This document shows positions 19,721 to 56,809 of a DNA stretch of 64,000 bases, one piece after another (the first letter of the stretch is position 1; each line of letters starts with the position of its first letter). This DNA comes from Undaria pinnatifida (taxonomy: Eukaryota > Sar > Phaeophyceae > Laminariales > Alariaceae), in contig JABAKD010000027.1 in NCBI GenBank assembly GCA_012845835.1, positions 1,535,189 through 1,599,188 of the forward strand, in the 5' to 3' direction. The translations under genes and the position numbers were made by a program. The notes below the pieces were generated by a model that saw only the letters and a list, made by a program, of their open reading frames with translations, ran no database searches and was not told the DNA's origin.

Positions 19721-19989
19721 TGTTAAGATACGGCATCGAACGACCTGTGATTACTTGAATGAATAAACTTGGCCGGTTTTCGTATGATAGGTTTGGCGTT
19801 TCATATTCGGGATAGTCAGGAAACAGAATGGAGGCGCGTGCCTCCGTTCTCATAAGTCATCCGGAGCTCTGGTGGAATCTACTAAAGCTACGTCTCTCCT
19901 GAAGCTACGAGAGTGAGTACTCTCCGAGGATTTGCCCAATTGGCAGACCTGCAGGGGACACTGTGTCCCCGCCCAATACGTTTACAACA
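19721..19989 (+). repeat. Left LTR of element A
   Basis: 269 bp, starting TGTTAAGATACGG and ending TTTACAACA. It contains a hairpin at 19,825-19,850 with GGAGGC and GCCTCC arms. The sequence TGGCGTTG directly downstream is a plausible primer-binding site; the tRNA is not identified. Confidence 0.85.
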
Positions 19990-22770
19990 TGGCGTTGTTT
20001 TTGACCTGACTTGCTATTTTGGCAGCGTTCCTCCAATCTCTCCGATAGTCGTTTTCGTAGCGATTTTGCTCTTATTTTCCATCGAGCCCCCAACCCCCGT
20101 TTCTTCACGGGTGGAGGGATCGCCTTTGCTCCTCCAACGGCGACCACTACAGAAGCAAAGATGGCAGGGGCCCATCCTGTTGGTCGCCGGGCACGTACCA
20201 CAAGGATGACACCTTCCGACTACGTGCGGACGACACTGCTCTTCGGAGCACACTCCTCGTCTCGGGTTTTGGTCGCATCAGTTACCTGCCTGTTGGTCCA
20301 CGACACATGGACCACTCGGCAGCGGAACTGCCCAAGCCCCACCCACCAGACTTGTTCGCTCCGCGCTCAGCCAGCATGTTGCACCCTGCCAGGATCGCCC
20401 GGCGCAATTTCCTGCACATATCCGCGAGCAGCCAGCACAAGCCTCAAGATTGCCCGTCGACGTGTACTTTTTTTGCGCTTCGGGGCTTAGGCATATGCAC
20501 GACGCGTCACGGACAAGCATACTGGAATAAGTTCTTCGAGTGACCAGCAACGGGATCTTCGCTTGCTGAGAGAGCTCATCGGCTTGCATACACATTTGCT
20601 GACAGAGCCAGACAGGCCTTCGCGAGGCCTCCTTGGTCTACGGGCACCGCGTTCTAAGAGCTCATGTCGAGGCTCCTTCCTTGTGGTCCTCCTTGGGGGG
20701 GAAGCAGGCAGTGCTCGCGGAATGTTTGGACTTTCTCGAGTGGCGATTTTTTTAGTGCACGCGTTATCGTATGGGGCTCAGTACATACGAGTATCCGTCT
20801 TGCGCGTCGGACACACTCTGCTCCCTTTCTGCTGAAAATAGTACAGCTACCAATTTGACGCACCCCGGACCCCACCCCGATCTTTAGCGATCAACAGCGA
20901 TCCACCGCATAACGTAGCTTCAACCACCATCATGTTCGCAGCGCTACCAACAACAGCAGTGCAGCATAATGGGCTTGCTGCCAGTACATGCTAAATAACG
21001 TCGGATTTTCTGCTGTAGAAGTCACTGTACAGCAGCGGAGCCGCCTACCTTGCTCCCGCCCATTCAGCACATAGCTCGACCCTCCTCTGCCCCAGCGTCC
21101 ACGTTACAGCACTGCAGCTCTGACACCCTCGGCTGCTTGTCGCGTACCTCCTTGCGAGTTCGATTCGAGACATTTTTCGTTTTGGCCTTCCCGTGACAAG
21201 AGCTTGAATTTATTGAACGCTAAATTCCTGTGTCGGCTTTTTCTGGCGCAAGGCTGTCAGCGTGGGCGATGCCCTGTATTTCACCATTTGTGGGTACGCG
21301 GGGGTTAATACCACGTGCTGTATGGGCACAGCTGCGATGGTGAGGCACACTGCACTGCTGTCGACGTAACTGTCCCTTTACTGTGCGGTCGGCGCGGGTA
21401 CGAATTGTTTCAGTTGTTCAGGCGTTATGCTGTCCCTCCAATGACTCTTAGTACATGTGCTGCTCTTGACGATGCTACTAGGGTCTACGCTGGCATTTCA
21501 TTTTTCTGCGCATGTTAAGACAGCTATTGACCGTTACAGAGCGTTTACTACAGTTCGCGGAGGTACTGCGCTTTGCAGCTAAGTGAAAGTGGGGATCGGT
21601 CCGTTTGATGCGGTACTAAGGGGCAAACAGCCTTCCTATTCGGCTTCGGGCGTAACACCTCTTCTACAGCTGGTCTTGGTATTTTACTCCCCTTTTTAAG
21701 GCGGTTGGTGTTGTCATCACCCGTGGACGCAGGAGCAATCTTGCAGCAATCAGCACAACTGTAGGCTCGACCGTCCCTGTGTAGTGCTGTCGGTGGGGGA
21801 ACTGCCTTGGTCGGACGCTATACCAACCATCTTAGTGCGGGTGGAATTGCCGACATCTGTTCATGCAGCCGCGATACTACAGCAATTGGCACTACGGTAT
21901 GCGAGACCGTCCCCCTATAGTGCGGACGGTGGGGAAACTGCCTTGCTTGGGCGTTATACTGCCTATCTTCGTGCGGTTGGTATTGTCGGTACCTATGGGC
22001 ACAGCAGCGGTAATGCAGCAAGCAGCACTACTGTTGGCTCGACCGTCCCCCTATAGTGCGGTCGGTGTGAGAACTACTTTGTTCGGGCGTTGTACTGACC
22101 TTGTCCTCTGGTTGGTATATGTGCAACCCTCTACTGCGTATGTGCAACCCTCTACTGCGCTACCCCCCCCTACACTACGGTTAGGGCAGATGCTTCCCGG
22201 TTTTATATGGTTGGTTGTCCGATTCTCTACTGTGCTACTCCCCCCTGCACTTTTGTTCGGGCAGATCCTGCCCGTTTCTACACGGCTAGCTGTGCGATCC
22301 TCTACTGTGCTACCCTCGCCTACACTATTGCTTGCGCAGATGTTGCCCGTTTCTATACTGTTAGCTGTACGACCCGCTACTGTGCTACGCCCCCCTACAC
22401 TACTGTTAGGGCAAATGCTGCCCGTCTATGTGCGATGGGCACGGACTTTCGTGCGACCCACTGTGCAACCCCCTCTACACTCCACCTAGGTCAAATACTG
22501 CCTATTTTGATGCGATGAACGTCGACGTGATAAGCGACCCTTTAATGTACAGGTCCCCTACACTGTGCATGGCATAAATGCTGCCTGTTTTGATGCGATG
22601 GCCGTGGGCTTTTAGTGCAACCCTTTACTGTGCTACCCCCCCTTACACTGCATTTAGGTCAAATGCTGCATGTTTTAGTGCGATGGGCGTGGGCTTTTGA
22701 GCGACGCTTTCCTGTGCTTCCCCCCCGCGCCTAGGTGAAATGCTGCCTGTTTTAGTGCGGTAAGTGCAGA
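19990..22770 (+). other. Non-coding leader of element A
   Basis: Long 5' leader aligned with 48,002-51,350 of element B. It has one copy of a 102-bp block (about 20,185-20,280) that is doubled in B. It also has a roughly 135-bp repeat (GTCCCTGTGTAGTGC near 21,777, with GTCCCCCTATAGTGCGG near 21,909 and 22,047) that occurs once in B. A 75- to 85-bp array follows. No conserved protein is evident. Confidence 0.6.
22125..22760 (+). repeat. 75- to 85-bp leader array of element A
   Basis: The CTACACTA-like anchor occurs at 22,170, 22,245, 22,320, 22,395, 22,475, 22,558, 22,642 and near 22,727. The spacing is exactly 75 bp for the first units and 80-85 bp for the later ones. The units match the 84-bp array of element B but are more diverged. 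Confidence 0.75.
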
Positions 22771-23099
22771 CGTATCTTCAACGTGTTGCACCCCTTCACT
22801 GCGGTTAGGGCCAGTACTGCCCGTTTCTGGCCGCTTTTATTGCGGTTCGTGCGGGCGTTACCCGAATACCCTACGGTCAGACTGGGCGCTGCTGTTGTTA
22901 TTGCGGTTTCGGTGGATGGAGCCCTCCTTACCGCTGTCCTCCATTTATACTGCAAGTTGGCGTGTGTGCTGCCATCACTGACGCTGGACGCAGTCGAGAC
23001 CCATACCTTGCCGTTTGCTGGCACACAGATACTACCGCGACTTGCAGCAGGGACACCATACCAATATACTGCCTCCATAGCTTCTGTATGAGTCGTTCC

Positions 23100-25900
23100 C
23101 ATCCCGCCACCTTCTCCTACACCCCCTCCACCCGCTGCACTCCCTACAGACAACAAGCAGCAATATGTCTTTATACCCATGAGGAATCGGGCTACTCGAG
23201 AAAGGCTGAGGTCGTCCACACGCCCCAACCTGGAGGCCCACGAGACAGGGAGAGCTCGCTCGAGATCCCGCACTCGAGACGGGGGGAGACACCGGAGGTG
23301 GGTTCCGGTGACGAGACAAAAGACGGACCACCACACCACCACACGGATCCACTAATCAAGAGGGTCGACTGGTTGGTTCGCGCAGAGAAGGAGCCGAACC
23401 AATCTCCACCGGACTCGGGGGCGTCTCGACGCCAGCTCTAGCCAGCCCCGGAGGAGCGCCACCAACTGGCCCCCGCGCGCTCGACAGGGCACCACCGCCG
23501 CTACCTGGGTAGGCAGAGCGCCACCCCCAGAGCTCCCGGGACCGGGGCACCCATGCCGGCCCCATGCACTTGGCATATGCGGCGGTGCGGGCCCAGCGGG
23601 CGCTCGACGACGCCAAACATATGATTCTCCGGCGTGAAGCACGCCGACGTCAGTTTGACGGAGACATCGAGCAGGCAAAGACCGCTGGGCGGGAGGCGTC
23701 CTACGTAGTGAAGAGGGCGCTACAAGCCCTGGCCCAATCAGTTGCGTCGGCTTTGGCGGGAGCTACAGCGGCTCCCTCGCCTTCGACACGCCCGCAGGGT
23801 GTCGCATCCCAGCCACCACGACCAGGGGACTACGCCTTTTTCAAGGGCGGCGTCGCGCGCATGAGGTCTGCAACGGGGGTAGACCCACACCTCAGCGTTG
23901 GCGACCGCGGTGGTGGAAGCGGCCTCCGCTCTCCTCACGTTAGAGAGGCCGGCATCGCGGCACGAGAACGCCTTTTTAGTGGAAGCGGCCTGGGCTCACA
24001 TGGATTGTATCGCCTATGCAGGACAGACGAGAGCCGCCTCGACCCCTGCCCTCGTCAAGACCCTCCAAATAGCCCATGACGAGCCCCCCGACCCCGTCTT
24101 CTGGCCGACCTCCAGAGAAAGAGTGGGCGAAACGCAACCGAGAAATCCAGCGAAGTAGCGACAGTCGCGACCGCGGGAGCCGCACCCGTGGGTGTGGTGG
24201 TAAAAGGGGTAGCGGCAAAAATGGTGGGGGTGGCGACCACCACCACCGACGCGGGGATGACAGCGGTAGTGGAGGCGAGCAAGGGTATCGGGTGCTGGTA
24301 TGGCTCAGGGCGCCGCCGAGGGGGCAACGTGGGTCGCAACAACCGGGGCGGTGGCCGCAGCTCTGGCAGGGGCAAAAGGAGGGCGGAGGAACGGTGCGAG
24401 AGAACGTCCAGCGTGGGACGGCTCGTCAACCTCCTCCCGCTCGCCGTCGGTCTCGAGCACGGACCACGGCGAGGTGACCGTGGTAGCACGCAACAGGTGT
24501 CGCGAGCCATGGTAGGATAGGCATCTGGGCCGGAGGCCTCCACCCTCCTGTTGCGTATGCTAATGACGCACTTCGACCGGGTCGACACAGGGGGGGGCTA
24601 CACTAAGTTGCATACTTTTGAAATGTGTAACGGCACTTGTTTTTCTGATTTTACGCGGGAGTTTCGCGTACTAGTGTCGACCGCTACGGGAAGTGAGCGT
24701 GTTTTGTCCCCGGGGACGGATGTGCTGTTGGAGATGTTTCGGATGGCGGTGAATGAGCAATTTCCCACTCCCATGCCCGCGTTATAGCCTGGTTCGAAGG
24801 CAACGGACCCGCGGCAATACATACGCCTGTTGGATGCTATGCGGCGGGTGCTTAGTGATTTTGGTCATACTAAGACACCTGCCGTCAACGGCGAACCTAC
24901 TGTTATCTGCCTGTTTCTTCGATGGAAGCGCGGTCATCCGCCCCGTCGGTGCCGGGTCCCGGCCCGGCGATCATGGGCGTGGCCAGGGCCGAGTGTCATC
25001 CCTGTCGCTTTCGTGGCAGACGAGATGGAGCCATCATCCAACTGTCATGCCCACCGGCGATTCATCTGACCCTTGGCTTGACCACACATCGAACTTCTGG
25101 CCACTAAAAGATCATCATTGTGCAGAAGGTTTCGACGTTAGTGTTTTTTTAAGATGGACTACCCTCCTCTTTGGAGAGGCCTCCTTTCACCCTCTACTCA
25201 CACTGATGCCTTCCAAGAAACCCGGGGGCTTTGACTCAACTGCCACCAAGACAACCACTCCTTCAAGCATTGTAGGCATCCTTTCATTAATGCGAGCGAC
25301 TGTTTGAACCCTGAACTTGGCTAACTTGGCGACGATGACGCATACCGATGTTGACAAGCACGCATGGTCTGCTACCGCCGAGACGACAAATCTTGTCGCC
25401 CGAACAACCACAAGAAAAATTGTCGCCATCATCCGGGTGAATCGCGAGGGTACAACCAGGATCAAGGCCAGGAAAACTGGCACAACGATAGCACAAACAC
25501 GTAGGATCACCATGGTGATATCCCGGTCTCGTCCGCTTCCTCTGCCCCCGGCCCTTCTCCTAAAATGCGCTCTGGAGCCGCCTACAACCGGAGCGGAAAT
25601 CCTAACGAGCGCCAGCTTGGAACATTCCGTACCGGCAATTGACACCTCGACAGCAGTACGGCACCGTCGGGGACACCTCTTTCGGTTTCAGAAGATACTC
25701 GTGTACGTGTTGCCAGCCTGCCCAAACACGCAGCACAACTTGCCTCGGTCAAGAGCCCACGGGCTCCTACGCAATCTGCTTACGATTCCCACGGCGTTGT
25801 ATCGGCGGTGGGAACTAGCGCTTCGAGCATGGTTTCCCCCAACCAGGTGTTTTTTCCGACGGTTAGAACGCGGGCGTCCGGCGACGTTCCCTTCGGTCAT
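23100..25900 (+). pseudogene. Gag remnant of element A
   Basis: Recognisable against the better copy in element B: a GVASQPPRPG block near 23,797, a glycine/histidine-rich stretch (GGGDHHHRRG) near 24,230, TKLHTFEMCNGTCFSDFTRE near 24,600-24,660, and a CCHC zinc-knuckle region near 25,232-25,275. The knuckle's first cysteine codon (TGC in B) is TGA here (25,232-25,234), so the frame stops inside the knuckle. The blocks lie in at least three frames. The role is inferred as the structural Gag of the element: the CCHC knuckle binds RNA in this protein class. Confidence 0.65.
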
Positions 25901-26654
25901 GGTCTGAGTTAAGCGACGGGAACCCGCGCCTCCAGTGCTGTTTCCCTCAGCCGCGGCATAACCTCGGCAAAAGAGGGACGCGCTGAAAACCCCGCCCCCA
26001 TCAACCATGGCACGGGAGCCCGCACTTTGCGCGTTTCCCCCCCATGAACTCGTCGCCCAACAATAAACCTCGGTGACGGCGCGTCGCCTTTTCACGCGAA
26101 CGTGTTCATCCCTCCCTCTTCCTGACTAGGCGGTGGTGGTCGGTTTAAAGTGTGGAACGGCCGACCCTCAATCACTTTTTCCGAACATGATGTGGCGGTC
26201 GGTTTGCGGTGTGGGAAGGCCAACACTATACCGCCGAGATCTTCAGGAGGCTCGATCCGGTATTTGCTCACGATCGCAGCGGGCGGTTTTTTTTTCATCA
26301 CGGAGGAGTCGACATAATTCGCTACCTCGTCCCACTTCTCCGAGAGGCGTAACGGAATAGAGCCTCCTCGGGTGAAAACGTTATTGTCACCTGCCCGAGC
26401 CCAGCTCCAGAAGACATCCAACGGTCTATTGGCCCCTGGTTGGTCTTTCGGAACGCTAGCACACGTGCTTCAGGCTACGTCTGCCCCAATTGCACAGGGA
26501 TAAGATCTAACACTGCGTGATGGGCCAGTGGTGACCGCACGGCCTCCAGCCTGATCACCTGCGCAATTCCTGTACATTTACGGAAGAATCACGACTCTCG
26601 TCCAGCAGAGACAGCTCAGAGCCCTAGCAGTTTTTTTTACATCATACCCCAAAG

Positions 26655-27190
26655 AGCAAAGAGACCACGACGCGAGAAACCGTGTGTTCGGACTCGCGTC
26701 GTGCTGCCGAGGCCTAGTGTTCCTGAGGGGGACACTAAAGGCCCAAAGTGTCGTTAAATAGTGTCCCCAGAGGGACATTACAGACCCAAATTCCGAACGA
26801 GGCTACCGACGGGTTGCCACCGTCATTGTTGGACTCGTTTACTGGTGCGGTGAGGGCGGATTCTTCGAGTTTCCGCCAGCGAGTGAAGAGGACCGGAGCC
26901 AAGAAACCGCGGGTTCGGACTCGCATCCTGCTCCCGAGGCCTGAAGTTGGGACACTGCAGGCCCCAAGATCCGAGGACTATGTTTCCAGAAGGGGAAATT
27001 GCAGACCCAAATGTCCAACGAGGCTACCGACGGGTTGGCATCGTCGGTTTTTGCCATTTTTGGAGCGCAGTGAGAGAGGATTTTCGCGTTTTTCCCGCCA
27101 ACGAGCCGACAAGACCAGAGGCGAGAAACCGTGCGTTCGGATTCGCGTCGTACTCCTAAGGCCTAGTGTTCTCGGACGAGGACATTGCAG
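26655..27190 (+). repeat. Three 220- to 230-bp repeats before NADAR, element A
   Basis: The word GAAACCGYG followed by TTCGGA, TCGCGTC-like, CCGAGGCCT and GTGTTC recurs near 26,661, 26,891 and 27,113. Each of the first two units ends with CCNAACGAGGCTACCGACGG. The last unit runs straight into the NADAR frame. Element B has the same three units at 54,896-55,440. Confidence 0.75.
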
Positions 27191-27720
27191 GTTCAAATTC
27201 CAACACAGCCTTTTTGTTTTACCGTTCCCTGGAATACTCCACAGAGAAAGTGGTGTCGTTCTGGCGGCCCCCATCCTTTTTTTCACCGTGGTCCCCTTCG
27301 TCGTTTGTCGTGGACGACGTGCCATATTCTTGCTCCGAGCAGTATATAATGGCTGACGAGACAAGGCTTTTTCAAGACCATCGGGCAGTGGAGCTTATCC
27401 TGTCGTCGCCTACTCTAAGCACATGCAAGCGCATCGGTCGAGGCGTGCGCAACTTTGATCCCGGTGTTGAGTACTGGGAGAAACGAAACGCCGTGCTATC
27501 TGGCATCTACGCCAAATGCACGCAGAATCCAGTCATAAAACAAGCCCATTTTGAGCTCTGACAACAGGCTTCTGGTTGAATCCAACCTTTTGGACCCAGT
27601 GTGGGGCATTGGTCTCCGGGCGGATGATCCCAAGGTCAACAACCCATACCAGTGGAGATAAAAAAATAGCTCGGCGAGGCACTTTTTGCCGTTCGCGAAG
27701 CTGTTCACGACAGTGAAACC
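27166..27720 (+). pseudogene. NADAR (YbiA-like) domain, element A
   Basis: The open frame 27,166-27,561 (131 codons) shows FW at residues 32-33, SPWSPSSF at 40-47, VDDVPYSCSEQY around 49-60, RLFQDH at 67-72, KRIGRGVRNFD at 88-98, W104 and the YAKCTQNP block at 115-122. After a frameshift near 27,550 it continues with SDNRLLVES, DPVWGIGLRAD and LGEALFAVREA to about 27,706. This is the complete conserved order of the NADAR superfamily. Family members act on ADP-ribose- or riboflavin-related N-glycosidic bonds; YbiA is the classic example. Only one frameshift breaks the domain, fewer than in Gag or integrase. The function inside a retrotransposon is unknown. Confidence 0.85.
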
Positions 27721-27844
27721 GGGTCGGCGCACCCGGCCTCCCCTACTCAGTTCCGCACATGCACTGCGACTGCAAAGACCATGAAATATCGTCCGCGCCG
27801 CGGCCAGGCCGTTAACAGCGGCCAGCAGTCGCAAAGGTTCTTCT

Positions 27845-28600
27845 TCAGAGTTTCCGACCTATTTCTCGGGCGCGTTGGTTAACTAAAAGCCATGAAGGTT
27901 TGGAGATACCTTCTGGTGGCGGTCCTGACCTGACGATGTCAGAATACGACCCCTGTTTTGTCGAGGATACTGTGGCGCTGGACGACGTTTCGTCCACAAT
28001 TAAAATAGCATACATCAATCGAGCAACTCTCAACTCGAAGAGGCACTGGGTTCCTCTGGAGTTCGGGACCGGCAGCATTGTTTAGGCTCCCAAACGCCTC
28101 CGAGGGTGCTTTAAGGAACCAAGTCCCGCATATTCACCGGCAACAAGGCATAGGAAAGCATTGGCAAAGTAGGAATCCTCAATACACGAGTCCAGCTGGT
28201 GCTTCAATTCGTCGCCGCGTTCGATTGCACACTCGAATATCGCAAAGGCAGCGTCAACGGCATTGCCGATTTTTCTGGCCCGCTTGCCAGAGCCTGCTGT
28301 GGAGTACGACCGCAGTGGCTTGACAAGCTTCAACCGCGTGGGGTTTCCAATCCCCAACTCCGTTGGAGATAGCGGTGTCCACCTCGTACGGACCGATGGG
28401 CAGCGCTCTCCCTCCTCGCCGATTCCAGGGGTCGGTTTGGGTGCACTCGTGCCCCGCACCGGAAGCACTGATTGGGGTGGACTCGTGCCCCGCACCGAAA
28501 GCACCGCCTTGGGTGGACTCGTGCCCCTCGCCGAAGGTACGGTCTTGGGTGGGCTCACGCCCCGCGCTGAACACGATGTCTTGGGTGGGTTTCCTTTCAC
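27845..28600 (-). other. Antisense open frames downstream of NADAR, element A
   Basis: On the minus strand, frames 28,082-28,600 and 27,845-28,078 are separated by a single stop. They encode KRARKIGNAVDAAFAIFECA, RGDELKHQLDSCIED and FANAFLCLVAGEYAG, then LMYAILIVDETSSS and NQRAREIG. Similar frames occur at the same place in element B. The plus strand is also partly open here, so I cannot say which strand was coding. I recognise no domain. Confidence 0.35.
28430..28590 (+). repeat. 36-bp tandem repeat (12-residue units), element A
   Basis: Four units spaced exactly 36 bp (anchors near 28,445, 28,481, 28,517 and 28,553). On the plus strand they read GGLVPRTESTAL-like 12-residue repeats. Element B has four units at 56,649-56,800. 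The unit length is a multiple of three, as expected for a repeat inside a coding linker. Confidence 0.7.
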
Positions 28601-28639
28601 CTCTACCGCATTTCACAATTTTCGCACACACAAGCCACA

Positions 28640-29590
28640 TATGGGATTGACGGTTTTTCTGCTCCCCCGGGAAGAGTCGTCGCTCGTGTTTCTGCCCCAA
28701 TCGCCACTGCCGAAGGCTGTACCGGCCGCAGGTCGATCACGCCTTCGGCTGGCACCGTTTCAGCTTTGGCTTGTGCTATACCCATCATGGAGGCACGGGC
28801 TCCACAGACGCCCTGGCTGCAGCGACGCCCATCACACAGCCCACTCCTCTGTGAAGGAGTTCTACACAGGAGATGGACTCCGCCGCGACCATCGGTTCGA
28901 CTGTGTCCATCTCTGCCTTGCTTAGAACTCCAGTCCCTCCGTCGTCGACGACGCGCCGACGAACAGCGACAGCAACCGGTAATGCACCCCGCTGTAGATT
29001 ATGGATCCGAGCCCGGCGGGGCCCCTCGACTATCTTCCTGGAATGTCAACACCCCGCTGCAAGTTACCACGGCCTCGGCCGACCCCGTCGACCGCCGCGA
29101 CCCCTGCTCCTGCCGCTCTTCTGGTCCCCGCGGTACTGATCCCGTCCGGCCTCGACCATGCAGAGCCTATGGAAACTCCTATCTTACGATTCACGCCTTC
29201 TCCTGGTGAATCGCCAACTGCACCTCCAAGGTCGGATGCCCTCGGCGAGGCTGCTGAATAGCAGTTCGCTGCTTCTGGCACCCGTTATTCGCATGGCGAT
29301 TGGTAGCGAGACCAGCACGCTGAGCCGACGTACCACGCTGCGATGCGTTACATCTCTATCAGCCGGCCGTCGGTCCTGCACCCTACTATTTTACCGTTTT
29401 CAAGGTCCCGTCCCTTTCAGACATCCAGGCAGTGGTGGATAAGGGTCCACTCCATGGAACAGACGGCGACGTCGCCCTACTCGTCCGTAACCTGACACTG
29501 CCGCCGACAAGGTTTGAAAAACCCCACTCTATAGGGCGAGCTGCTTGTTCACTATATGACGAGCCGATTCGCAATTAAGTCCGTCTGCTC
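28640..29590 (+). pseudogene. Proline/threonine-rich linker before integrase, element A
   Basis: A low-complexity Pro/Ala/Thr-rich segment corresponds to 56,860-57,480 of element B. It ends in fragments of the pre-integrase region (for example VRNLTLP and GRAACSLYDEP in shifting frames). It shows no recognisable RNase H signature, although RNase H would normally sit here in a Ty3-type Pol. Confidence 0.45.
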
Positions 29591-30600
29591 AAGCGCCCTT
29601 GGATTATGCAAGCTTGTATTCCGACGGCCTCTTGCCACCTTGGCACCACGCGAACGTTGCGCATGCTGGGGCGGTTTCATTGGTTAATTGGCATGAATGT
29701 GTGCACCCGGTGGTGGCATCGCCACTGCTTAAAATGCCAAGCGCGGAAAACACCACGGCTAACTGGCAGCTGGCCAATCATCTCAATCCCTCTACCGGTA
29801 GGTCCAGGTGTCGCCGTCAGTGCTGACTACTTTGGCCCCCTTCCGGTCACCCCACGGGGCAGCACCTTCATCTCCCTGTTCACCGATCGCTGCAGTCGTC
29901 GGGCCGATATGTACCCCGTCACTGCCGCTGAGTTCACCGCGGAAGATACAGCTGATATCCTGGTGAACACCAATACATCCCCTTGTGGAGGTGTCCGCGC
30001 ACAGACCGCTTCAAGCTTTCACAAGCTGTATATCAGCTTTTGGGTGTGCGCAAGCTTGCTACAAGCTCCTACTGTATCGTAACGGGGGCGTTGGGTGGGT
30101 AAACCACACTATGGCCCAAATGCTGGCTATGGTCATCAGCTAGCGACAGGACAATTGGGACATGCATCTGCCTCACGTCGAATTCGCTTACAACAATTCC
30201 GCCAGAGTGGGGATGGGTCTGGCGGCCAACGAGGTCCACATGGGCAGACCCCCACGTCTCCCCATGACCGTTTTTGACCGCACTGGCGTCGTGGGACACC
30301 AGAGTCTATCCCCTGACCACCTAGTCCATCGCGACTTGGCCACCGACCGGCAAAAGCGCGCGAACGACATTGCTCCCGCACACCACGCCCTCACCGTCTC
30401 TGGTGTCAACCGCAGACACTACACCCTCGTCGACGCGCTGCACCCAGAACCTAACTTCGTTAAGGGTGGTTGGACAAGGGTGTACAACTCTAACCCCACG
30501 ATCCGCCGGACTGTGAAGTCGAAAACAGACGCAAAAGTACTCAATGCCAAACTAGCGCTTAACTGGACAGGCCCGTACAAGATCTAGGCAGTCGGTTCCT
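29590..30600 (+). pseudogene. Ty3/gypsy-type integrase remnant, element A
   Basis: The zinc-binding part keeps CHLGTTRTLRML with RHCLKCQARKT near 29,635-29,760. The first catalytic aspartate is in SADYFGPLPVTPRG near 29,820-29,860. The second catalytic aspartate is deleted: about 25 bases present in B around 58,228-58,255 (LSDNGLQF) are missing near 30,005. The catalytic glutamate of B (GGVERVNHTM) is glycine here (GGVGWVNHTM, near 30,085). Downstream, PHVEFAYNNS, LAANEVHMGRPPRLP and the GPY motif LALNWTGPYKI (ends near 30,585) are intact. The enzyme is dead twice over. Confidence 0.85.
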
Positions 30601-30659
30601 GCACCGCCGCCGAGACCCCGGACGTTTCGCCGCTCGGGATCAACCTCCTTGATTTAGAT

Positions 30660-31430
30660 CTCCCTTCCGACCTGCCCGGTTCGAACGCTCGTCGGGGTGT
30701 GGAAAGCGAACGCTGCAAACCCTATGCTAACATCCATAACAGCGGGGACATGCCCACATATCGACCGGCGGGGCTTACACAGTACGTGCTTGAACGTTTT
30801 TCTACAAAGTCTCCGCCGTACCACGTCACTCGAGACGACGTTTCGAACTCCCTCCAACGGCTGAAAGTGGAGCAGATCACCAGCAATCAGTCGGTACGGG
30901 GACGAGGTGGCGTCATCGTTGTGCTATACAAGACGCGCCGGGCGGGACTCTCCGAACCTTCCTTGGAGCGGGAGATAGACCTTCACCTCTCCCGCTACCA
31001 CACATTGCGTTATTGGGCCGGAACCCCGGACCAGCACAGCCAAACCAACCGCCTCTACCGCCAAATACGGATCGGGGCGGCACACCGCGAGCTCTCCCGC
31101 CTCAACAAAGAACGTTTCCTAGCGTCGGGCTACGCTTGGTGTTCCTCGCGCCCATTGGCTCCGTGGCTGCCACGACATGGTGCTTTCTAAGGGAGTCAAC
31201 GTTTGGTACAATGAAAACGATGGGTTGTGGTGGCTTGGAAAAAACAGCGCGAGCACTACCGAGGTCAAGGCATACCTGATCCGCTTTCTGGCCGACCTCG
31301 GACCGACCGATTAAACTTCCTCTTCTGCCGGCGCGCTACGGGACTTCGACGGGAGCCGTACGAGGCTCTTGGTGCCTACAAGTTCACATCGCCAGCAGTT
31401 CGTTTCCTCGAGGAATCCAACGTAACGTAG
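30660..31430 (+). pseudogene. Chromodomain and Tudor-like tail, element A
   Basis: The frame 30,699-31,190 contains VEQITSNQSVRGRGGVIVVL, YKTRRAGLSEPSLEREIDLH and LRYWAG, which fits a chromodomain (about 30,867-31,016), the histone-tail reader that targets integration in chromoviruses. After frameshifts, DGLWWLGKNSAST and AYLIRFLADLGP follow (31,196-31,310), then STGAVRGSWCLQVHIA. The WWLGK...YLxRFLxD pattern resembles a small Tudor-type barrel; this is inference. Element B has the same two segments in better condition. Confidence 0.7.
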
Positions 31431-32303
31431 ATTAATCTCGAGGCGCGACCGTGGCCAGTTGACCTTCAAGCCGCCACCGCTTCTCGATAGCTGTCCACGT
31501 TTGGAGGGGTTTATGAGGTTTAAGTCTTTGTTTCTGGGTTGTTCGTGACGTTCTGAGAGTATTGGTCTGTTTTTGGGGCGGTTCTTTTGAAACCGAGAAT
31601 GTTTTCTTTTGCCCTGCCGAACCCCATGCGTAGTGGTTTGGGTAAAACGTTACTGCCTGAGGCGCAGGGTTCGTCGCTTTTTCGTCGTTGTTCAATTTCG
31701 CCCCGCCGACGCCCTCCTCAGCCCAGAGGCGGGGGGCGCCCACGGTACCCTGGTTTGCGCGTAACGTGGTACAGGGTAATGTACAGGCCTCTTTGCCATT
31801 TCTATTTTTGTGTGTGTTGTATTTGTTCTACCTTTTTTTCCGGCCCGACACACACCGGCTGTAGGTGATGCCACCCTTCATCCCGGTTATTTGTCGTTTC
31901 CTCGCCTAACCCCCTGCCATGCCGATGGTCCGCGGGAGGTTCTTGGTATGACTTCTCCCTTGTGCACCTTTTTTGTGGTTGGTTTGTGACAGTAGAGCCT
32001 TTTCTGCCCCCCTCCGCCACACCGGCGGTGTGCAGCAGGTTCTGGAGCTTTTTCGGCGTTTCCCCCACCACACCGGCGGTACGCGGCAGGTTTCGGTGGG
32101 TGGTTTATGCCTTGTTGTAGGGTCTGTTTTTGCTCCACTGCTTTGGTTTGCGTGTTCCTGGCTCCATAGCCAGGCCGTAAGAGGGGTGGGAGTAGATTTT
32201 GAGGAGCCACATCTTCGACTCATCATGGTCTAGTTTGTTGAACCGGAGTTTCCACGAATCTTCCATATTTCTGCATATTATGCGGCTCCTCAGGGTGGGC
32301 CAG
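31431..32303 (+). other. 3' untranslated part and purine tract of element A
   Basis: T-rich non-coding tail. Two copies of a GC-rich word, CCGCCACACCGGCGG and an ACCACACCGGCGG variant, lie near 32,014 and 32,069; each can fold into a short hairpin. CAGGGTGGG at 32,291-32,299 just before the right LTR is the likely polypurine tract. Confidence 0.6.
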
Positions 32304-32582
32304 TGGTAAGATACGGCCTCGAAAGGCCTGTGTTTATTTGAATTTAGATAAATTGGCTGGTGTTCGTGTGAAAAAATTGGCGTTTCATATTCGGGATAGT
32401 CAGGAAATAGAACGGAGGCACGTCCCTCCGTTCTCACAAGTCATCCGGAGCTCTGGTGGAATCTAATCAAAAGCTACGTCTCTCCTAAGCTGTAAGGCCA
32501 AGAAAGTGCGTACTCTCCGAGGACCTGCAAAGTTGGCAGAGCTGCAGGGGGCACTCTTACGTCCCTGCCCAATATTATTACA
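32304..32582 (+). repeat. Right LTR of element A
   Basis: 279 bp, from TGGTAAGATACGG to ATTATTACA, followed by the CTTT duplication. The hairpin at 32,409-32,434 has arms AGAACGGAGG and CCTCCGTTCT. It differs from the left LTR by many substitutions and about 10 bp in length, so the insertion is old. Confidence 0.8.
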
Positions 32583-47732: not shown

Positions 47733-48001
47733 GGTTAAGATACGGCCTCCAAAGGCCTGTAGGTATCCGAATTTGAGATCATTCGGTTGGGTTTCGTATG
47801 ATAAGGTTGGAGGTTTATATTCGGGGAAGTTAGGAATTAGATCGGAGGCACGCGCCTCCGATATCAGAAGCTATCCCGGGCTCTGGTGGAAACGAATAAA
47901 GCTACATCTCTACGAAGGAACGAAAGTGAGTACTCTCCGAGGACCTGCTCAATTGGCAGACCTGCAGGGGGCACTCTGTGTCTCCCACCTTTAATTTAAC
48001 A
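47733..48001 (+). repeat. Left LTR of element B
   Basis: 269 bp ending TTTAATTTAACA, followed two bases later by TGGCGTCGACGAGC as a possible primer-binding site. It has the GATCGGAGGC/GCCTCCGATA hairpin at 47,840-47,863. Confidence 0.88.
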
Positions 48002-51000
48002 TGTGGCGTCGACGAGCTTGATATGCTATTGTGGCAGCGTTCCTCAAATCTCTCCGATTTTTTTTTCGTAGCGATTTTGCTTTTGCTTTCCATCGAGCCC
48101 ACAACCGCTGTTCCTTTTCGGGTGGCTCCTCAATGGAGGGAGCGCCCTTCCTCCTACAACGGCGACCACAACAGCAGTGAGATGGCAGGGGGCCCTCCTG
48201 TTGGTCGACGGGCACGTACCACACGGACGACACCTTCCAAGTACGTGCGGACGACACTGCTCTGCGGAGCACACTCGTCGTCTCGAATTTTGGTCCCTCC
48301 TGTTGGTTGCTGGGCACGCACCACACAGAGGACACCTTCCGAGTACGTGCAGACGACACTGCTCTTCGGAGCACACACCTCGTCCCGACCTTTGGTCGCA
48401 TCAGTTCACCGCCAGCTGGTCATAGACCACTCCGCAGTGGAACTGCCCGAGCCCCACCCATCAAACTTGTTTGCTCCGCGCTCTGCCAGCATGTTGCACA
48501 GCACATCTCCGCGAGTTGCCAGCACAAGCCCCAAGATCGGCCATCGACTCGTAGTTTTTTTTTGCGCTTTGGGGCTCGGAGGCATATGCACGACACGCCA
48601 CCGAACAAGCATACTGGAATCAATCCTTCGAATGACCTTCGCTGGCTGAGAGAGCCCATCGACCAGCATACACCTTTGCTGTCGGAGCCAGACCGCCCTT
48701 CGCGGGACCCCCTTGGACTACGGGCACCGTGCTCTAGGAGCTCATGTCGGGGCTCCTTCCTTGTGATCTACCTGGGAAGGAACAGGCGGTGCTCGTGGAA
48801 TGTTTGGGCTTTTTCGTTTGGCGAAGTTTCCAGTACACGCGTTATCGTATGGGTTTCAGTACATACGTCGATCCGTCTTGTGCGTCGAACAAACAGCTGC
48901 TCCCTTTCTGCCGAAATTAGGACAAGCTACAAATTTGACGCACCTCGGACCCCTCTCCGATCTTTCTCGATCAACAGCGTTCCACTACTGCTGTGCGTCG
49001 CGTAGCTTCAACCACCATCATTTTTGCAGAGGTACCAACTACAGTGCAGCACAATGGGCTCGCTGTCAATGCCTGCCATATACCGCCGGATTCTCTGCTG
49101 TAGAAGTCACTGTACAGCAGCCAAGCCGCCTACTTTGCTCCTGCTCATCCAGCACATAGCTCGACCCTTCACTGCCCCAGCGTCCACAGTTACAGCACCG
49201 CAGCTCTGACACCCCCCACTGCTGTGCGAGTGCTCCTAGCAAGCTCGATTCGAAAGTTTTTTTTTCGTCCTGGCCCCCCCGTGACTGGAACTTGAACCTA
49301 GTGAACGCTGAAACTCTGTGCTGGCTTTTTTGGGCAAGGCTGTTGGTGTGTACGATGCCCTATATTCTCCCATTCATGGGTACGCGGGGACTATAATACC
49401 ATTTTCTGTGTATGCACAGCTGTGACCGTGCGGCACTCCGCACTGCTGTCAACGTAACTGTCCCTTTATCGGTGGGAGTAGGTACGGATTTTTTTTTTCA
49501 GCTGTCCGGGCGTTAGGCCCTCTTCCTGCCGGTACATGTGCTGCCCTTAACGATATTGCTAGAGTCTACGCTGGATTTTTTTTGCTTCTTCTTCTCTGCA
49601 CATGTTCGGACAGCTACTGCCCGTTACAGAGCGCTTACTGCACAGTTCGCGGAGATACTGCGCTTCACAGCTTTTACTAGTGCAGTGGAGATCAGCCCGT
49701 TTGATGCGGTACCTTTGGGGGCAAACAGCCTTTATATTCGACTGTGGGCGTGCACATTTTTCTACAGCTGGTGTTGGTACTACACTACCCATCTTAGTGC
49801 GGTTGAAATTGCCGTTACCTGTTAACAAAGCAGTGATACTGCAGCAATCAGCACTACTGCAGGCGCGACCGTCCCCCTTTAGTGCGGTCGGGGGAAACTA
49901 CCTTGTTTTGGGGGGTTATTCTGCCCGTTTTTTATATGGTTGGCGCGCGAACGTATACTGTCCTACCCCCCCCTACACTACTGTGGGGGCAGATGCTGCC
50001 CGTTTTTTTACGGCGGTGGGCTGCGCGATCCTTCATTGTGCTACCCCCACCCCCTACACTACACCTAGGGTAAATGCTGCCTGTTTTGGTGCGATGAGTG
50101 TCGGTGCGTTGGGCGACCCTTCACTGTGCTTCCACCCCTACACTACACCTAGGTTAAATGCTGCCTGTTTTTGTGCGATGAGTGGCAGCGTGTTGGGCGA
50201 CCCTTCACTGTGCTACCCCCCTACACTACACCTAGGGTAAATGCTGCCATTTTTAGTGCGATGAGTGTCAGCGTGTTGGGCGACCCTTGACTGTGCTTCC
50301 ACCCCTACACTACACCTAGGTTAAATGCTGCCGTTTCTGGTGCGATGAGTGTCAGCATGTTGGGCGACTCTTACACTGTGCTTTTACCCCTGCACTACAC
50401 GTAGGGTAAGTGCTGCCTGTTTTTGTGCGATGAGTATCAGCGTGTTGGGTGACCTTTCACTGTGCTAACCCCCTACACTACACCTGGGTTAAATGCTTCC
50501 TGTTTTGGTGCGATGAGTGTCGGCGTGTTGGGCGACCCTTCACTGTGCTTCCATCCCTACACTACACCTAGGGTAAATGCTGCCTGTTTTTGTGCGATGA
50601 GTGTCAGCGTGTTGGGCGATCCTTCACTGTGATTCCACCCCTACACTACACCTAGGTTAAATGCTGCCTGTTTTTGTGCGATGAGTGGCAGCGTGTTGGG
50701 CGACCCTTCACTGTGCTACCCCCCTACACTACACCTAGGGTAAATGCTGCCTGTTTTGGTGCGATGAGTGTCGGCGTGTTGGGCGACCCTTCACTGTGCT
50801 TCCACCCCTACACTACATCTAGGTTAAATGCTTCCTATTTTGGTGCGATGAGTGTCAGCGTGTTAGGCGACTCTTCACTGTGCTTCCACCCCTACACTAC
50901 ACCTAGGTTAAATGCTGCCTGTTTTTGTGCGATGAGTGTCAGCGTGTTGGGCGACTCTTACACTGTGCTTCCACCCCTACACTTCACCTAGGGTAAATGC

Positions 51001-51350
51001 TGCCTGTTTTGGTGCGATGAGTGTCGGCGTGTTGGGCGACCCCTCAGTGTGCTTCCACCCCTACACTACATCTAGGTTAAATGCTGCCTATTTTGGTGCG
51101 ATGAGTGTCAGCGTGTTGGGCGACTCTTCACTGTTCTTCCACCCCGTTACTACATCTAGGTTAAATAATGCCTGTTTTTGTGCGATGAGTGTCAGCGTGT
51201 TAGGCGACTCTTCACTGTGCTTCCACCTCTCCACTACACCTAGGTTTAATGCTGCCTGTTTTGGTACGATGAGCGTCGGCGTTTTGGGCAACGCTTTCTT
51301 GTGCTACCCCCCTGCCCAGGTTGAATGATGCCTGTTTAAGTCCGATGGCT
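48002..51350 (+). other. Non-coding leader of element B
   Basis: Aligned with 19,990-22,770 of element A. A 102-bp block is duplicated in tandem here (starts 48,200 and 48,302) and single in A. The second half is the 84-bp array. Many stops lie in every frame before the array. The length (about 3.3 kb) is unusual for a retrotransposon leader. Confidence 0.6.
49945..51340 (+). repeat. 84-bp tandem array in the leader of element B
   Basis: Seventeen CTACACTACACC-like anchors from 49,973 to about 51,312, spaced 81-85 bp and mostly 84, give about 16 units. Each contains GTGCGATGAGTGTC, GTGTTGGGCGAC and TAAATGCTGCCTG. Because 84 is a multiple of three, open frames of 105-130 codons run through several units with a 28-residue period. 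A few 83- and 85-bp units break them, so I do not call a protein. Confidence 0.9.
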
Positions 51351-51699
51351 GCGGACGAACGTTTACTGTGTTGCACCCCCTGCACCGCGGTTAGGGCCGG
51401 TGCTGCCCAGTTTTGACTGCTTTTACTGCGGCTCGTGCGGGCGTTACCCGTATACCCTACAGTCAGACTGGGCGCTGCTCCTATGTTGTGGTTTTGGTGG
51501 ATGGTACCCTTTTTACTGCTGTACTCCTTTAATACGGGTAGTTGGCGTGGCTGCTACCATCACTGATGCTAGACGGAGTCGAGGCCCATGTCTTGCTGTT
51601 TGCTCAAACACAGATATATCGCTACTTACAGCAGGGACACCACAACAATATATCTGTCTCTATAGCTTCTTCACGCGTCGTTCCCATCCCGCCACCTTC

Positions 51700-53990
51700 T
51701 CCCACATCCCTTCCTTCCGCTGCCCTCCATACAGACAACAAGCAACAAGTCTACCTGTGAGGAAGCGGGCTACTCGGGGCAGGCTAAGGTCTTCCACGAA
51801 CCCCAACCTGGATGCCCACGAGACAGGAAGAGCTCGCTCGAGATCCCGCGACTCGAGACGGGGGGAACCACCGGACGCGGGTTCCGGTGACGAGACAGAA
51901 GACGGAGCACCATGCCTCCACCCGTTTCCACCAACCAAGCGGGTCGATTCGCCGGTTCGCGACCAACCCCTACCGGACTCGGGGGCGTCTCGACGCCAGC
52001 TCTCGCCAGCCCCGGGGGAGCGCCACCAGCTACCCCCCCACGCTGGACAGGGTACCACCGACGGTGTCGCATCCCAGCGACCACGACCCGGGAACGACGC
52101 CTTCTTCAAGGGCATCGTCGCGTGCATGGCGTCTGCACCGAGGGTAGAATTCTCCTCAGCGTTGGCGACCGCGGTGGTGGAATCGGCCTGCGCCCTCCTC
52201 CTGTCAGAGAGGCCGGCGTCGCGGCAAGCGGACGTCCTCAGTGAAAGCGGCCTGGGCTCGCGTGGATTGTACGCCCTATGCTAGACAGACGAGAGCCGCC
52301 CCGACCCTTGCCCTCGTCAAGGCCCTGCTGATAGCCCACGACGAGGACCCCGACCTTGTCTTTTGGCCGAACCCCGGAGGAAGAGTTGGCAGAACGAAAC
52401 CGGGGGAATTGTCGCGACAGTCGCGACCGCGGGGACCGCAACCGTGGGGGTGGCGGCAAAAATGGTGGGGGTGGCGACCACCACCACCGCCGCGGGGGTG
52501 ACAGCGCATCGCGTGCTGGTATGGCTGAGGGCGCCGCCGAGGGGGCAACCTCGGTCCAACAACCGGGACAGTTGGCCGCAGCTCTGGCGGAGGCAACGGA
52601 GGGCGGAGGAATGGCGCGAGAGGACGTTCAGCGTGGGACGGCTCGTCAACCTCCTCCGGCTCGTCTTCGTCCTCGAGCGCGGACCACAGCGAGGTGGTCG
52701 TGGTAGCAGGCAAAAGCGTCAAGAGCCATGGCAGGAGGAGCATCTGGGCCTGAGTCTTTCACCCTTCTGTTGCGTCTGCTGATCACGCACTTCGACGGGG
52801 TTGACACGAAGGAGAGCTACACTAAGTTGCATACTTTTGGAATGTGTAACGGCATGCCTTTTTCTGATTTCAGTCGGGAGTTTCGCGTACTTATGCCGAC
52901 CGCTACGGGGAGTGAGAGTGTTTTGACTCCGGGGGCGGATGTGGTGTTGGAGGTGGTTCGGGTGGCAGCGAATGAGCAAGTTCCGGCTCTCCTGCCTGCG
53001 TTGTACCCTGGTTCGAAGGCAACGACCCGCGGCCATACGCCTCGTTGGATGCTATGTGGCGGGCTTTTAGTGACAAACAAGACACCTGCCGTCAACGGCG
53101 AAACCTTTTTTTTTTTCCCTATCTGTTTCTTGGGCGGGAGTGCGGTTATCCGCCCCGTCGAGGCCCCGGCCCGCCAAACATGAGCGCGGCCAGGGCCGAG
53201 TGCCGCCCCAGTCGCTGTCGTGGCAGACGGGATCGAGCCATCATTCAATTGTCACGCCCATCGATGATTCATCTGACCCTTGGCTTGACCACACATCGAA
53301 CTGCTGGCCACTAGAAGAGCATCATTATGCAGAAGTTTTCGCCGTTGAGGCCTCGTTTAAGACAGACGACCCTCCCCTTTGGCGCGGCCTCCTTTCACCT
53401 CGCGCTGATGCCCTCCGAGAAAACCGGGGGCTTTGCCTCAACTGCCACGAAGACAACCATTCCTTCAAGCATTGTAGGCATCCTTTCATTACTACGAGTG
53501 GCTGCTTGAACCCTGAACTAGGCCAACTTGGCGACGATGACGCACACCGACGTTCACAAACACGCATGGTCAGCTACCGCCGAGACGACAAATCTCTCGC
53601 CCGAACAACCACAAGAAAAATCGTCGCCATCTTTCAGGATCAGGGCCAGGTAAACTGTCACAACGCTACCACTTACACATCGGATCACCATGGTGGTATC
53701 CTGCGCTCGCCCGCCTCTTCTGCCCCCGCTCCAGCTCTTCGAATGCGCTTTGGAGCCGCCTACAACCCGGGCGAAAATAAATTTGGGCACCAACCTGGCA
53801 CATTCTGTAACGGCAATCGACAGCTCGACGGCGGTATGGCACCGTCGACAACACTGTCGGGGGGTACCTGTTTTGGTTTCAGAAGATGCTCGTGTTCTGT
53901 TGCTAGCCTGTCCATAACGCAGCACAGATTGCCTCTGTCAAGAGCCCACGGGCTCCTACGCCGTCTGCGGACGATTCGCACGGCGTAGTA
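51700..53990 (+). pseudogene. Gag remnant of element B with CCHC zinc knuckle
   Basis: Blocks in order: GVASQRPRPGNDAFFKG near 52,062; ALATAVVESACALLLSERPA near 52,160-52,220; after a frameshift, YARQTRAAPTLALVKALLIA and DPDLVFWPNP; a glycine/histidine-rich stretch; TKLHTFGMCNGMPFSDFSRE near 52,816-52,880; then, in another frame, a perfect CCHC zinc knuckle CLNCHEDNHSFKHC at 53,434-53,475. The frame continues to a stop near 53,986. At least three frameshifts and an in-frame TAG near 52,705 break it. It is inferred to be the nucleic-acid-binding structural protein of the element. Confidence 0.75.
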
Positions 53991-54895
53991 CCGGCGGCGG
54001 GAACTAGCGCTTCAAGCGTGGTTTCCTCCAGCCAGGTAATATTTTTTCGTTTCTTTCGTTTTTGACGGCGAGAACGCGCGCTTTCAGCGACGTTCCCCTA
54101 GGTCATGGTCTGAGTTCGGCAACGGGAACCGCGCTTCCGGCGCCGTACCCCTCAGCCGCGGCGTAAACTCAGCAATGGAGGTACGCGCTCCAAACGCCGC
54201 CCCCATCAACCATGGCACGGGGGCCTGCGTTTTGCGCGATCCCCCCCCGGGCACGCGCCGCGCAACAATATAGCTGCGGCGACGGCGCGGCGCCTTTTTA
54301 CGCGTATGTGTTTATCCCCCCCTCTCCCTGACCAGGCGGTGGCGGTCGATTTGAGGTGTGGGACGGTCAACCCTCGAAGCACTTTTTCTGACCACGAGGT
54401 GGCGGTCGATTTGAGGTGTGGGAAGGCCAACACTAAAACACCGAGATCTTTTGCGAGGCTGGATCCGGTGTTTGCTCGCGATAACAGCGGGCGCTCTGTC
54501 TTTTTTTCCATCAAGGAGGAGTCGACAACATTAGCTACCTCGTCCTCCTTCTCCACGAGACATAACGGAAGAGAGCCTCCTCGGGTAAAAATATTATTGC
54601 CTTGCCCGAGCCCCGCTTCAGAAGACGCCCACAGGGTTTACGGACCCTGCTTCGTCTTTTAACACACTAACCCACGCGTTTCAGGCTACGTCTGCCCCAG
54701 TGGCACAGGAAGAAGATCCGACACTGCGCGACGGGCCAGTGGTGACTCCACGGCCTCCAGCCTGATCAGCTGGACGCTATTCCAGTAAATTAACGGAAGA
54801 ATCGCGCCTGTCGTCAAGCAGAAACAGCTCAGAGCCCCTGCCCCTTCGGGCGCAGTTAGAGCAGTTTTCTTGCGATTATACGCTAAAAAGCAAAG

Positions 54896-55440
54896 AGGCC
54901 ACGACGCAAGAAACCGTGGGTTCGGACTCGCGTCGTGCTCCCGAGGCCTGGTGTTCCTGAGGGGACACTACAGGCCCAAAGAGCCGAGGACTGGTGTTCC
55001 CAAAGGGGGACATTGCAGACCCAAATGTCCAACGAGGCTACCGACGGGTTGGCACCCTCGGTGATGGACTCTTTTTCGGGTGCAGCGAGGGCGGCTTCCT
55101 ACGAGGTTCCGCCAGCGAGTGAGGAGGACCCGAGGCGAGAAACCCCGGGTTCGGACTGGCATGTTGCTCCCGAGGCCTGGTGCTCCCGCAAGGGGATACT
55201 ACAGGCCCAAATAGCCGAGGACTGGTGTTCCCGGAAGGGGACATTGCAGACCCACAAATGTCCAACGAGGCTACCGACGGGTTGCACCATCGGTGTTTGC
55301 TATTTTTCGGGCGCAGTTAGAGCGTATTCTCGCGCTTTTCTGTCAACAAGCGAAGAAAGACCCGAGGCGAGATACCCCGGGTTCGGATTCGCGTCGTGCT
55401 CCCGAGGCCTGGTGTTCCTGGACGGGGATATTGCAGGCCC
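54896..55440 (+). repeat. Three 230-bp repeats before NADAR, element B
   Basis: The unit starts with GAAACC and GGGTTCGGA near 54,914, 55,139 and 55,371. It contains CTCCCGAGGCCTGGTG and GGGGACATTGCAGACCCA (absent or altered in the last), and the first two end with TGTCCAACGAGGCTACCGAC. In one frame the units read EARxPGFGxASCSRGLVF-like segments that continue into the NADAR domain, so they may have been part of one protein. Confidence 0.75.
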
Positions 55441-55498
55441 AAATTTCAACACGGATTTTGACCCTTCTCTCAAATACTCCACAGCCAAATTGGTGTTA

Positions 55499-55930
55499 TT
55501 CTGGCAGCCCCCATCCTATTTCCTACCGTGGTCCCCTTCGTCGTTTGCCGTGGACGACGTATCATATGCTTGCGCGGAGCAGGACATGATGGCCGAAAAG
55601 ACAAGGAGTGGGGCTCATTATTTCGTCGCCTCGTCCAAGCACACGCAAACGCATCGGTCGAGGCGTGCATAACTTTGACTCCGTTTTTGGGGACAGGGAG
55701 AAGCAAAACGCCGTATCACCTGGCACCTACGTCAAATTCAAGCAGAATTCAGCCATAAAAAAAAATCACTTTTTGAGCTCTGACAACAAGCTTCTGGCTG
55801 AATCCAGCCCTCTGAACCCAGTGTGGGGCATTGGTCTCCGGGCGGATGGTCCCAGGGCCAACAACCCATGCCAGGGGAGAGGAAAAACTTGCTCGGTGAG
55901 GCACTTTCTGCCGTTCGCGCAGCTATTTGC
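55499..55930 (+). pseudogene. NADAR (YbiA-like) domain, element B
   Basis: The first half (frame of 54,935) reads FWQPPSYFLPWSPSSFAVDD, YACAEQDMMAEKTR. Then a deletion of 20 bases relative to element A (27,367-27,386) shifts the frame at 55,606. The second half (frame of 55,608) has KRIGRGVHNFDSVFGDREKQ, YVKFKQN, SSDNKLLAESSPLNPVWGIG and LRAD, and, after one more shift, LLGEALSAVR. All conserved NADAR blocks are present, with CAEQ and WGIG intact. The two copies together show the domain was full length in their common ancestor. YbiA-type enzymes hydrolyse N-glycosidic bonds; more recent work links NADAR proteins to removal of ADP-ribose from guanine. Confidence 0.85.
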
Positions 55931-55964
55931 GTCAATGAGACCGGGTCGGCGCACCCGGCCTCCC

Positions 55965-56554
55965 CTAGTCGGTTCCGCACCTGCACTTCGAGTGCAAGAA
56001 CCAAGAAATCTCGTCCGCGCCGCAACCACACCGTTCACAGCGGCCAGCGCTCGCAAAGCTTCCCCTTCGGCGTTTCCGACCCATTTCTCGGGCGCGTTGG
56101 TTAATGAAAAGCCGTGAAGTTGTGGAGATAGCTTCTACCGTCGGCCCTGACCATGCGATGTCAGAACACTGCCCCTGTTTCGTCGAGGGTACTGTGACGC
56201 TGGACGACGTTTTGTTCACTATGAAAATCGCGTATATCAGTTGAGCAACGCTCGACTCGGAGAGGCATAGGACTCCAATGGATTTGGGGACCGGCAGCAT
56301 TGCTTGGGTTCCCAAACGCCTCCGAGGATACTGAGGGGAACAAAGTTCCACATATCCTCCGGCCACCATACATAGGAGAGCATTGGCAAAGTGGGGACCC
56401 TCAATGCACGAATCCAGCGGTAGTTTGAGTTCGTCACCACGTCGATTGCACACTCGAGTACCGCAAACCCAGCGCCAAGGGCATCGCCGATTTTTCGGGC
56501 CCGTTTTCCAGAGCCCGCTACGGAGTACGACCGCAGTGGCTTGACAAAATTCAA
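55965..56554 (-). other. Antisense open frames downstream of NADAR, element B
   Basis: Minus-strand frames 56,237-56,554 and 55,965-56,453 together read KPLRSYSVAGSGKRARKIGD, RGDELKLPLDSCIEG, FANALLCMVAGGYVELCS, LIYAIFIVNKTSSSVTVPST and INQRAREMG. They match element A at 27,845-28,600, with one frameshift between them. No domain is recognised. The plus strand has partial openness too, so the coding strand is undecided. Confidence 0.35.
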
Positions 56555-56648
56555 CCTCGTGGGGTTACCCCGTTGGTGATAGCGGTGTCTACCTCCTACG
56601 GACCCGCGGGCTGCGCGCTCCCTCCTCGCCGATCCCAGGAGTCGGTTC

Positions 56649-56800: not shown

Positions 56801-56809
56801 TCCCTCTCA

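What the first reader, a model, noticed from the sequence alone, without database searches (positions are those of the whole stretch)
27166..27720. NADAR (YbiA-like) domain inside an LTR retrotransposon, copy A
Seen: an almost complete NADAR domain (FW...SPWSPSSF, SCSEQY, KRIGRGVRNFD, WGIGLRAD, LGEAL-AVR) sits on the sense strand between Gag and integrase. Known: NADAR proteins act on NAD/ADP-ribose or riboflavin derivatives and occur in immunity and toxin-antitoxin settings. Inference: the element captured a host or bacterial NADAR gene, perhaps to remove ADP-ribose marks from its RNA, DNA or proteins placed by a host defence. I know of no described NADAR cargo in this class of element, but I could not search.
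Basis: partly seen in the sequence, partly recalled or inferred. Interest (0 to 1): 0.88.

Follow-up and report, generated by a model that had tools for sequence, protein, structure and literature searches.

The report
Broken NADAR gene in Gypsy retrotransposon
Two damaged copies of a large retrotransposon carry a broken gene for a NADAR enzyme, a combination already described in a brown alga in 2025, so this looks like a decayed relative of a known kind rather than a new discovery.

Summary
Window 27259-27667 encodes a NADAR domain (PF08719, E 9.4e-16, 58.9 bits in one frame; the rest, weakly, in the next), on the strand of a Ty3-like integrase, between two LTRs. Copy B, 28 kb away, has it at the same internal place. 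Each copy has its own 4-bp target duplication. A third copy lies on a contig, probably chimeric, of a bacterial MAG.

The NADAR frame is broken in all three copies, one break is shared, and substitutions show no codon-position sign of protein selection. No reverse transcriptase profile matched in the frames scanned.

I read the window element as a degenerate, probably non-autonomous member of that kind. Membership is inferred; I could not align to the published sequences. The anti-defence role is untested. The host, probably a brown alga, is also inferred. Low interest.

The parts
19721..32582 (+). Element A, LTR retrotransposon, 12.9 kb, target duplication CTTT
   Evidence: LTR pair by blastn, 81.1% over 280 columns; ends and duplication
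19721..19986 (+). 5' LTR of A (TG...CA)
32304..32582 (+). 3' LTR of A
26626..27179 (+). Three degenerate tandem units of about 225 bases directly before NADAR in A
   Evidence: the repeat finder family D5
27259..27543 (+). NADAR domain, N-terminal and middle part, A (profile 2-109 of 163)
   Evidence: PF08719 E 9.4e-16, 58.9 bits
27542..27667 (+). NADAR, following part in the next frame, A (profile 109-149)
   Evidence: PF08719 E 0.0029, 18.3 bits, below cut-off
27670..27720 (+). NADAR C-terminal stretch (LGEAL..VR) in a shifted frame, A; same frame break in B and L096
   Evidence: by eye
28000..28300 (+). Possible RNase H remnant in A
   Evidence: resemblance by eye only; no Pfam or PDB match
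29630..29752 (+). Integrase zinc-binding (H2C2) region, A
   Evidence: PF17921 E 2e-5, 25.0 bits, just under cut-off
47733..61088 (+). Element B, 13.4 kb, target duplication CTTG
   Evidence: LTR pair 95.5% over 266 bases; ends and duplication
54845..55444 (+). Tandem units of about 231 bases before NADAR in B
   Evidence: TRF
55499..55927 (+). NADAR domain in two frames, B; 20-base deletion inside relative to A and L096
   Evidence: PF08719 8.4e-12 and 4.6e-4; alignments
57806..58324 (+). Integrase H2C2 and core (rve), B
   Evidence: PF17921 1.1e-8; PF00665 6.5e-6 (under its cut-off); Ty3-G best PDB match 2.1e-9

Best explanation
Copies A and B are decayed insertions of a large Ty3/Gypsy LTR retrotransposon of the NADAR-bearing kind described in the brown alga Ectocarpus, where a YbiA-type NADAR forms the N-terminal part of Pol. 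An ancestor of the family acquired NADAR; the domain then spread by retrotransposition with the rest of the element. The sampled branch seems to have lost reverse transcriptase and was probably copied in trans by intact relatives, with NADAR as a dead passenger. In intact relatives NADAR most likely works as an N-glycosidic hydrolase that removes ADP-ribose from guanosine of the element's RNA or cDNA, or clears ADP-ribose products. Shown here: the domain, its shared place in separate insertions, broken frames, shared frame break, no codon-position constraint. Inferred: brown algal host, membership of the published lineage, loss of RT, mobilisation in trans, the enzymatic role.
For: NADAR profile matches in A, B and, weakly, L096. 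Separate 4-bp target duplications; no blastn match of 150 bases or more runs past the LTR ends. L096 matches B at 85.6% over 971 columns and A at 81.4% over 970. Integrase nearest to Ty3. Published YbiA-family NADAR at the Pol N-terminus of all families of one Ectocarpus Gypsy lineage. YbiA-type Glu at the position of P. nicotianae E125 in A, B and L096 (by eye). Broken frames and a shared break. Third-position changes in NADAR 16/63, 14/60 and 11/43 for the three pairs, below one third each. No RT profile match in plus-strand frames across A and B nor in minus-strand frames of A 23401-30903. NADARs reverse guanosine ADP-ribosylation of DNA and RNA in vitro (passages).
Against: No alignment to the published Ectocarpus elements was possible. 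Host unknown. The RT could be too fragmented for Pfam; RNase H, Gag and chromodomain had no profile match. Integrase shows some third-position excess (75/172, p 0.003; C-terminal region 26/57, p 0.04; Fisher against NADAR p 0.008), so the element was not wholly unconstrained, which fits poorly with a long-dead family. L096 may be an old copy, which lowers the power of the NADAR test.
Confidence: 0.8

Rival explanations
1. A and B are ordinary old copies of a fully autonomous NADAR-Gypsy family; RT and NADAR were intact when they inserted and decayed afterwards.
For: A's LTRs differ by about 19% and integrase keeps a third-position excess. Frame breaks in B's integrase are about what 4.5% LTR divergence could give (rough estimate, not computed in a call).
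Against: B's LTRs are 95.5% alike, yet neither B nor A gives an RT match while both give NADAR and integrase matches; one NADAR frame break is common to A, B and L096.
Confidence: 0.15
2. One reading: NADAR is a working anti-defence cargo that strips ADP-ribose marks placed by the host on element nucleic acid or protein.
For: Viral NADARs are proposed to counter ADP-ribose-based defence (passages of PMC9503650); NADARs remove ADP-ribose from guanosine in DNA and RNA.
Against: No intact NADAR in the 3 copies seen; no codon-position constraint; no host ADP-ribosylation defence was looked for. The 2025 paper suggests RNA processing instead.
Confidence: 0.12
3. A and B share NADAR because one genomic segment carrying a NADAR gene and LTRs was duplicated, not because the element carried it.
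For: Both copies lie on the same strand 28 kb apart.
Against: Separate target duplications and no flank homology of 150 bases or more; a third copy on an unrelated contig; published intact relatives.
Confidence: 0.02

Closest known systems
NADAR-bearing Gypsy lineage of Ectocarpus (example Gypsy-12_Ec32), PMC12477816, Genome Biology 2025
   Same: Ty3/Gypsy LTR element with a YbiA-family NADAR upstream of integrase; total length 12.9-13.4 kb is within the 3.9-14.5 kb reported for Ectocarpus LTR elements.
   Different: Window copies have broken frames and no RT match; the sequences themselves were not compared; C-terminal chromodomain not confirmed here.
Tx1 LINEs of Crassostrea gigas with NADAR in ORF1 (same paper)
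   Same: A retrotransposon with a YbiA-family NADAR.
   Different: Non-LTR element, ORF1 rather than Pol; not examined here.
Viral NADARs (phages, NCLDVs including phycodnaviruses, positive-strand RNA viruses), PMC9503650
   Same: NADAR carried by a selfish element; phage relatives align at about 40-46% over about half of the A piece.
   Different: Not in an LTR element; phage gp30.3-type NADARs are said to have His where this one has Glu.
Esi0017_0056, stress-induced Ectocarpus protein with DUF1768, PMC7922944
   Same: YbiA-like domain in a brown alga, proposed to come from bacteria.
   Different: Described as a host gene with two predicted introns, not as a retrotransposon.

Membership tests
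NADAR superfamily (PF08719) | Profile match above the curated cut-off | tested here: met
   A 58.9 bits, B 46.1 bits, cut-off 35.1; L096 single piece 23.3 bits, below
NADAR, YbiA subfamily | Glu at the position of P. nicotianae E125 (Asp in BC4488, His in phage type) | tested here: met
   Glu in A, B and L096 by alignment and eye (residue rule from passages)
NADAR, catalytically competent | Glu and Lys aligned with P. nicotianae E43 and K50, and an open reading frame | tested here: not met
   First Glu kept in A, B, L096; Lys kept in B and L096 but Glu in A; frame broken in all 3
Ty3/Gypsy LTR retrotransposon | LTRs with target duplication, and Ty3-type integrase | tested here: met
Ty3/Gypsy LTR retrotransposon, autonomous | Reverse transcriptase before RNase H and integrase | tested here: not met
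   No RT profile match in plus-strand frames of A and B or minus-strand frames of A 23401-30903
Ectocarpus NADAR-Gypsy lineage | NADAR at the N-terminus of Pol | tested here: inconclusive
   NADAR lies upstream of integrase, but Pol is broken and RT not found
Ectocarpus NADAR-Gypsy lineage | RT phylogeny within that lineage | not testable with these tools
   No RT found; published sequences not held
Ectocarpus NADAR-Gypsy lineage | C-terminal chromodomain on integrase | tested here: inconclusive
   Chromodomain-like stretch by eye; no Pfam match (Agenet E 0.15 only); structure model unusable, pLDDT 30.9

The most novel reading that the evidence does not exclude
A NADAR-bearing, RT-less Gypsy family spread in trans while keeping NADAR and integrase, and NADAR was kept for long because it lifts an ADP-ribose-based block on the element's RNA or cDNA; a shared frame break at an A-run near its C-terminus would then be a programmed slip rather than a lesion.
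Probability: 0.04. Interest if true: 0.7.

Novelty: new member of a known kind. Interest (0 to 1): 0.22.

Why it matters
It adds degenerate copies, and one copy outside the window, to the recently described NADAR-Gypsy elements, and suggests that RT-less, NADAR-carrying derivatives exist. If intact relatives use NADAR in transposition, they would be a tractable case of ADP-ribose chemistry in retrotransposon-host conflict. The window copies themselves cannot show that.

Tried and rejected
Phylogeny: 168 rows, the in-frame A piece with 167 loci (L096 left out of the tree); 147 columns; A on a long branch (1.21), no well-supported set holds it; nearest forks SH-aLRT 90 (with L158) and 84 (with L158, L012, L001), not trusted. 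Origin unresolved; no eukaryotic rows other than the element were available.

Single-sequence scans of viral contigs and genome contigs with the A piece found no relative; with alignment A2 they gave 255 and 527 relatives, of which the best 80 each were kept. A 27-base exact pattern from the NADAR and an integrase piece found nothing in viral contigs; the integrase piece found nothing in plasmids. RNase H, Gag and chromodomain by profile: no match. Structure of the integrase C-terminal region: pLDDT 30.9, unusable. No Rfam family at gathering score and no tRNA in the window. Segmental duplication rejected.

Results against the reading: integrase third-position excess; the 'RNase H remnant' rests on eye alone; codon-position tests were run on five groups with frames chosen from homology and B's ORFs, uncorrected.

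Full report
What is there. The open piece at 27166-27558 matches the NADAR profile PF08719 at E 9.4e-16, 58.9 bits, profile positions 2-109 of 163. The next part of the domain is in the following frame at E 0.0029, 18.3 bits, below the cut-off, and the C-terminal LGEAL..VR stretch is back in the first frame (by eye). Copy B carries the same domain in two frames, 8.4e-12 and 4.6e-4. tblastn of the A piece matches 177 of 50,697 phage records and 30 of 72,556 plasmid records at E <= 0.01, none over 80% or more of the query.

The element. blastn of the window on itself shows two LTR pairs: A at 81.1% over 280 columns and B at 95.5% over 266; the internal parts of A and B align over about 7.3 kb at 80.4%. 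A is flanked by CTTT on both sides and B by CTTG, and no listed match (150 bases or more) runs past the LTR ends, so these are two insertions. Integrase matches: H2C2 in A just under its cut-off, H2C2 above and rve below cut-off in B; the best PDB match of a B integrase piece is Ty3-G Gag-Pol, 2.1e-9. No reverse transcriptase, Gag, protease or RNase H profile matched in any plus-strand frame scanned across both copies, nor in minus-strand frames of A 23401-30903; the minus strand of B was not scanned. A stretch at about 28.0-28.3 kb resembles RNase H by eye only. Tandem units of about 225-231 bases precede NADAR in both copies.

A third copy. Among 80 kept genome-contig loci, L096 (CALFWN010000031.1, MAG titled uncultured Litoreibacter sp.) stands out: 65% identity to the A piece against 34-49% for the other 79; the 80 viral loci kept reach 33-46%. 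Its first 982 bases match B at 85.6% and A at 81.4%, including the tandem units; beyond that come FeS_assembly_P and AsnC-type genes. I take the contig for a chimera of bacterial and algal DNA; a true insertion was not excluded. That Litoreibacter is marine is recalled.

State of NADAR. The frame is broken in A, B and L096. Copy-specific breaks include a 20-base deletion in B. One break, before LGEAL, is common to the three, with no gap between the copies there. It may be a lesion of their shared ancestor; a programmed slip at the A-run there was not tested. Third-position changes are 16 of 63 (A-B), 14 of 60 (A-L096) and 11 of 43 (B-L096), at or below a third, so there is no sign of protein selection since the copies parted. 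If half of the B-L096 changes had been under strong constraint, 11 or fewer of 43 would have P about 0.0015 (that mixture is my assumption). Integrase does show an excess: 75 of 172 (p 0.003) and 26 of 57 in its C-terminal region (p 0.04); Fisher against NADAR 15 of 61, p 0.008. Gag-like (15 of 41) and RNase-H-like (14 of 34) pieces show none that is significant. These tests are small and uncorrected.

Residues. Passages of PMC11543638 name E43, K50 and E125 of the Phytophthora nicotianae NADAR; the PDB alignment places them. By alignment and eye, A, B and L096 keep the first and third Glu; the Lys is kept in B and L096 and is Glu in A. The Glu at the third site is the YbiA type, not the phage (His) or DarT-linked (Asp) type (passages).

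What is known. Paper searches that were answered. PMC12477816 (Dinatale et al., Genome Biology 2025; [quoted passage not shown] it suggests a role in processing the RNA intermediate. [quoted passage not shown] PMC11833690 (passages) shows that NADARs remove ADP-ribose from guanosine in RNA.

Verdict. I file it as a new, degenerate member of a known kind, with membership of the Ectocarpus lineage inferred from architecture. The host is not established: NADAR-Gypsy elements are reported from a brown alga, and the window outside the elements has 44-52% G+C in 4-kb bins, compatible with, for instance, 47% for Macrocystis (abstract in the listing).

Noticed in passing
L096 (CALFWN010000031.1), bases 1 to about 982: Retrotransposon DNA 85.6% identical to element B on a contig deposited as a bacterial MAG: probably a chimeric contig.
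   Followed up: partly
6858-10281 (+): Fragments of another retroelement: Pol_BBD (E 1.3e-8) and rve (E 3.9e-4, under cut-off); looks Copia-like by eye.
   Followed up: partly
59072-59586 (+): 257-base tandem duplication, 99% matches, in the integrase C-terminal region of B: recent.
   Followed up: no
50051-51296: Array of about 15 copies of an 84-base unit in the 5' non-coding part of B; A has only diverged units at 22141-22726.
   Followed up: no
27655-27672 (A) and the same place in B and L096: Frame break shared by three copies at an A-run, without gaps between copies: common lesion or possible slip site.
   Followed up: partly
59690-59890 (+): Chromatin-reader-like stretch after integrase in B by eye; Agenet only at E 0.15.
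   Followed up: partly
12474-12671 and 43112-43180: Trinucleotide runs (TTG and AAC) facing each other as inverted repeats.
   Followed up: no
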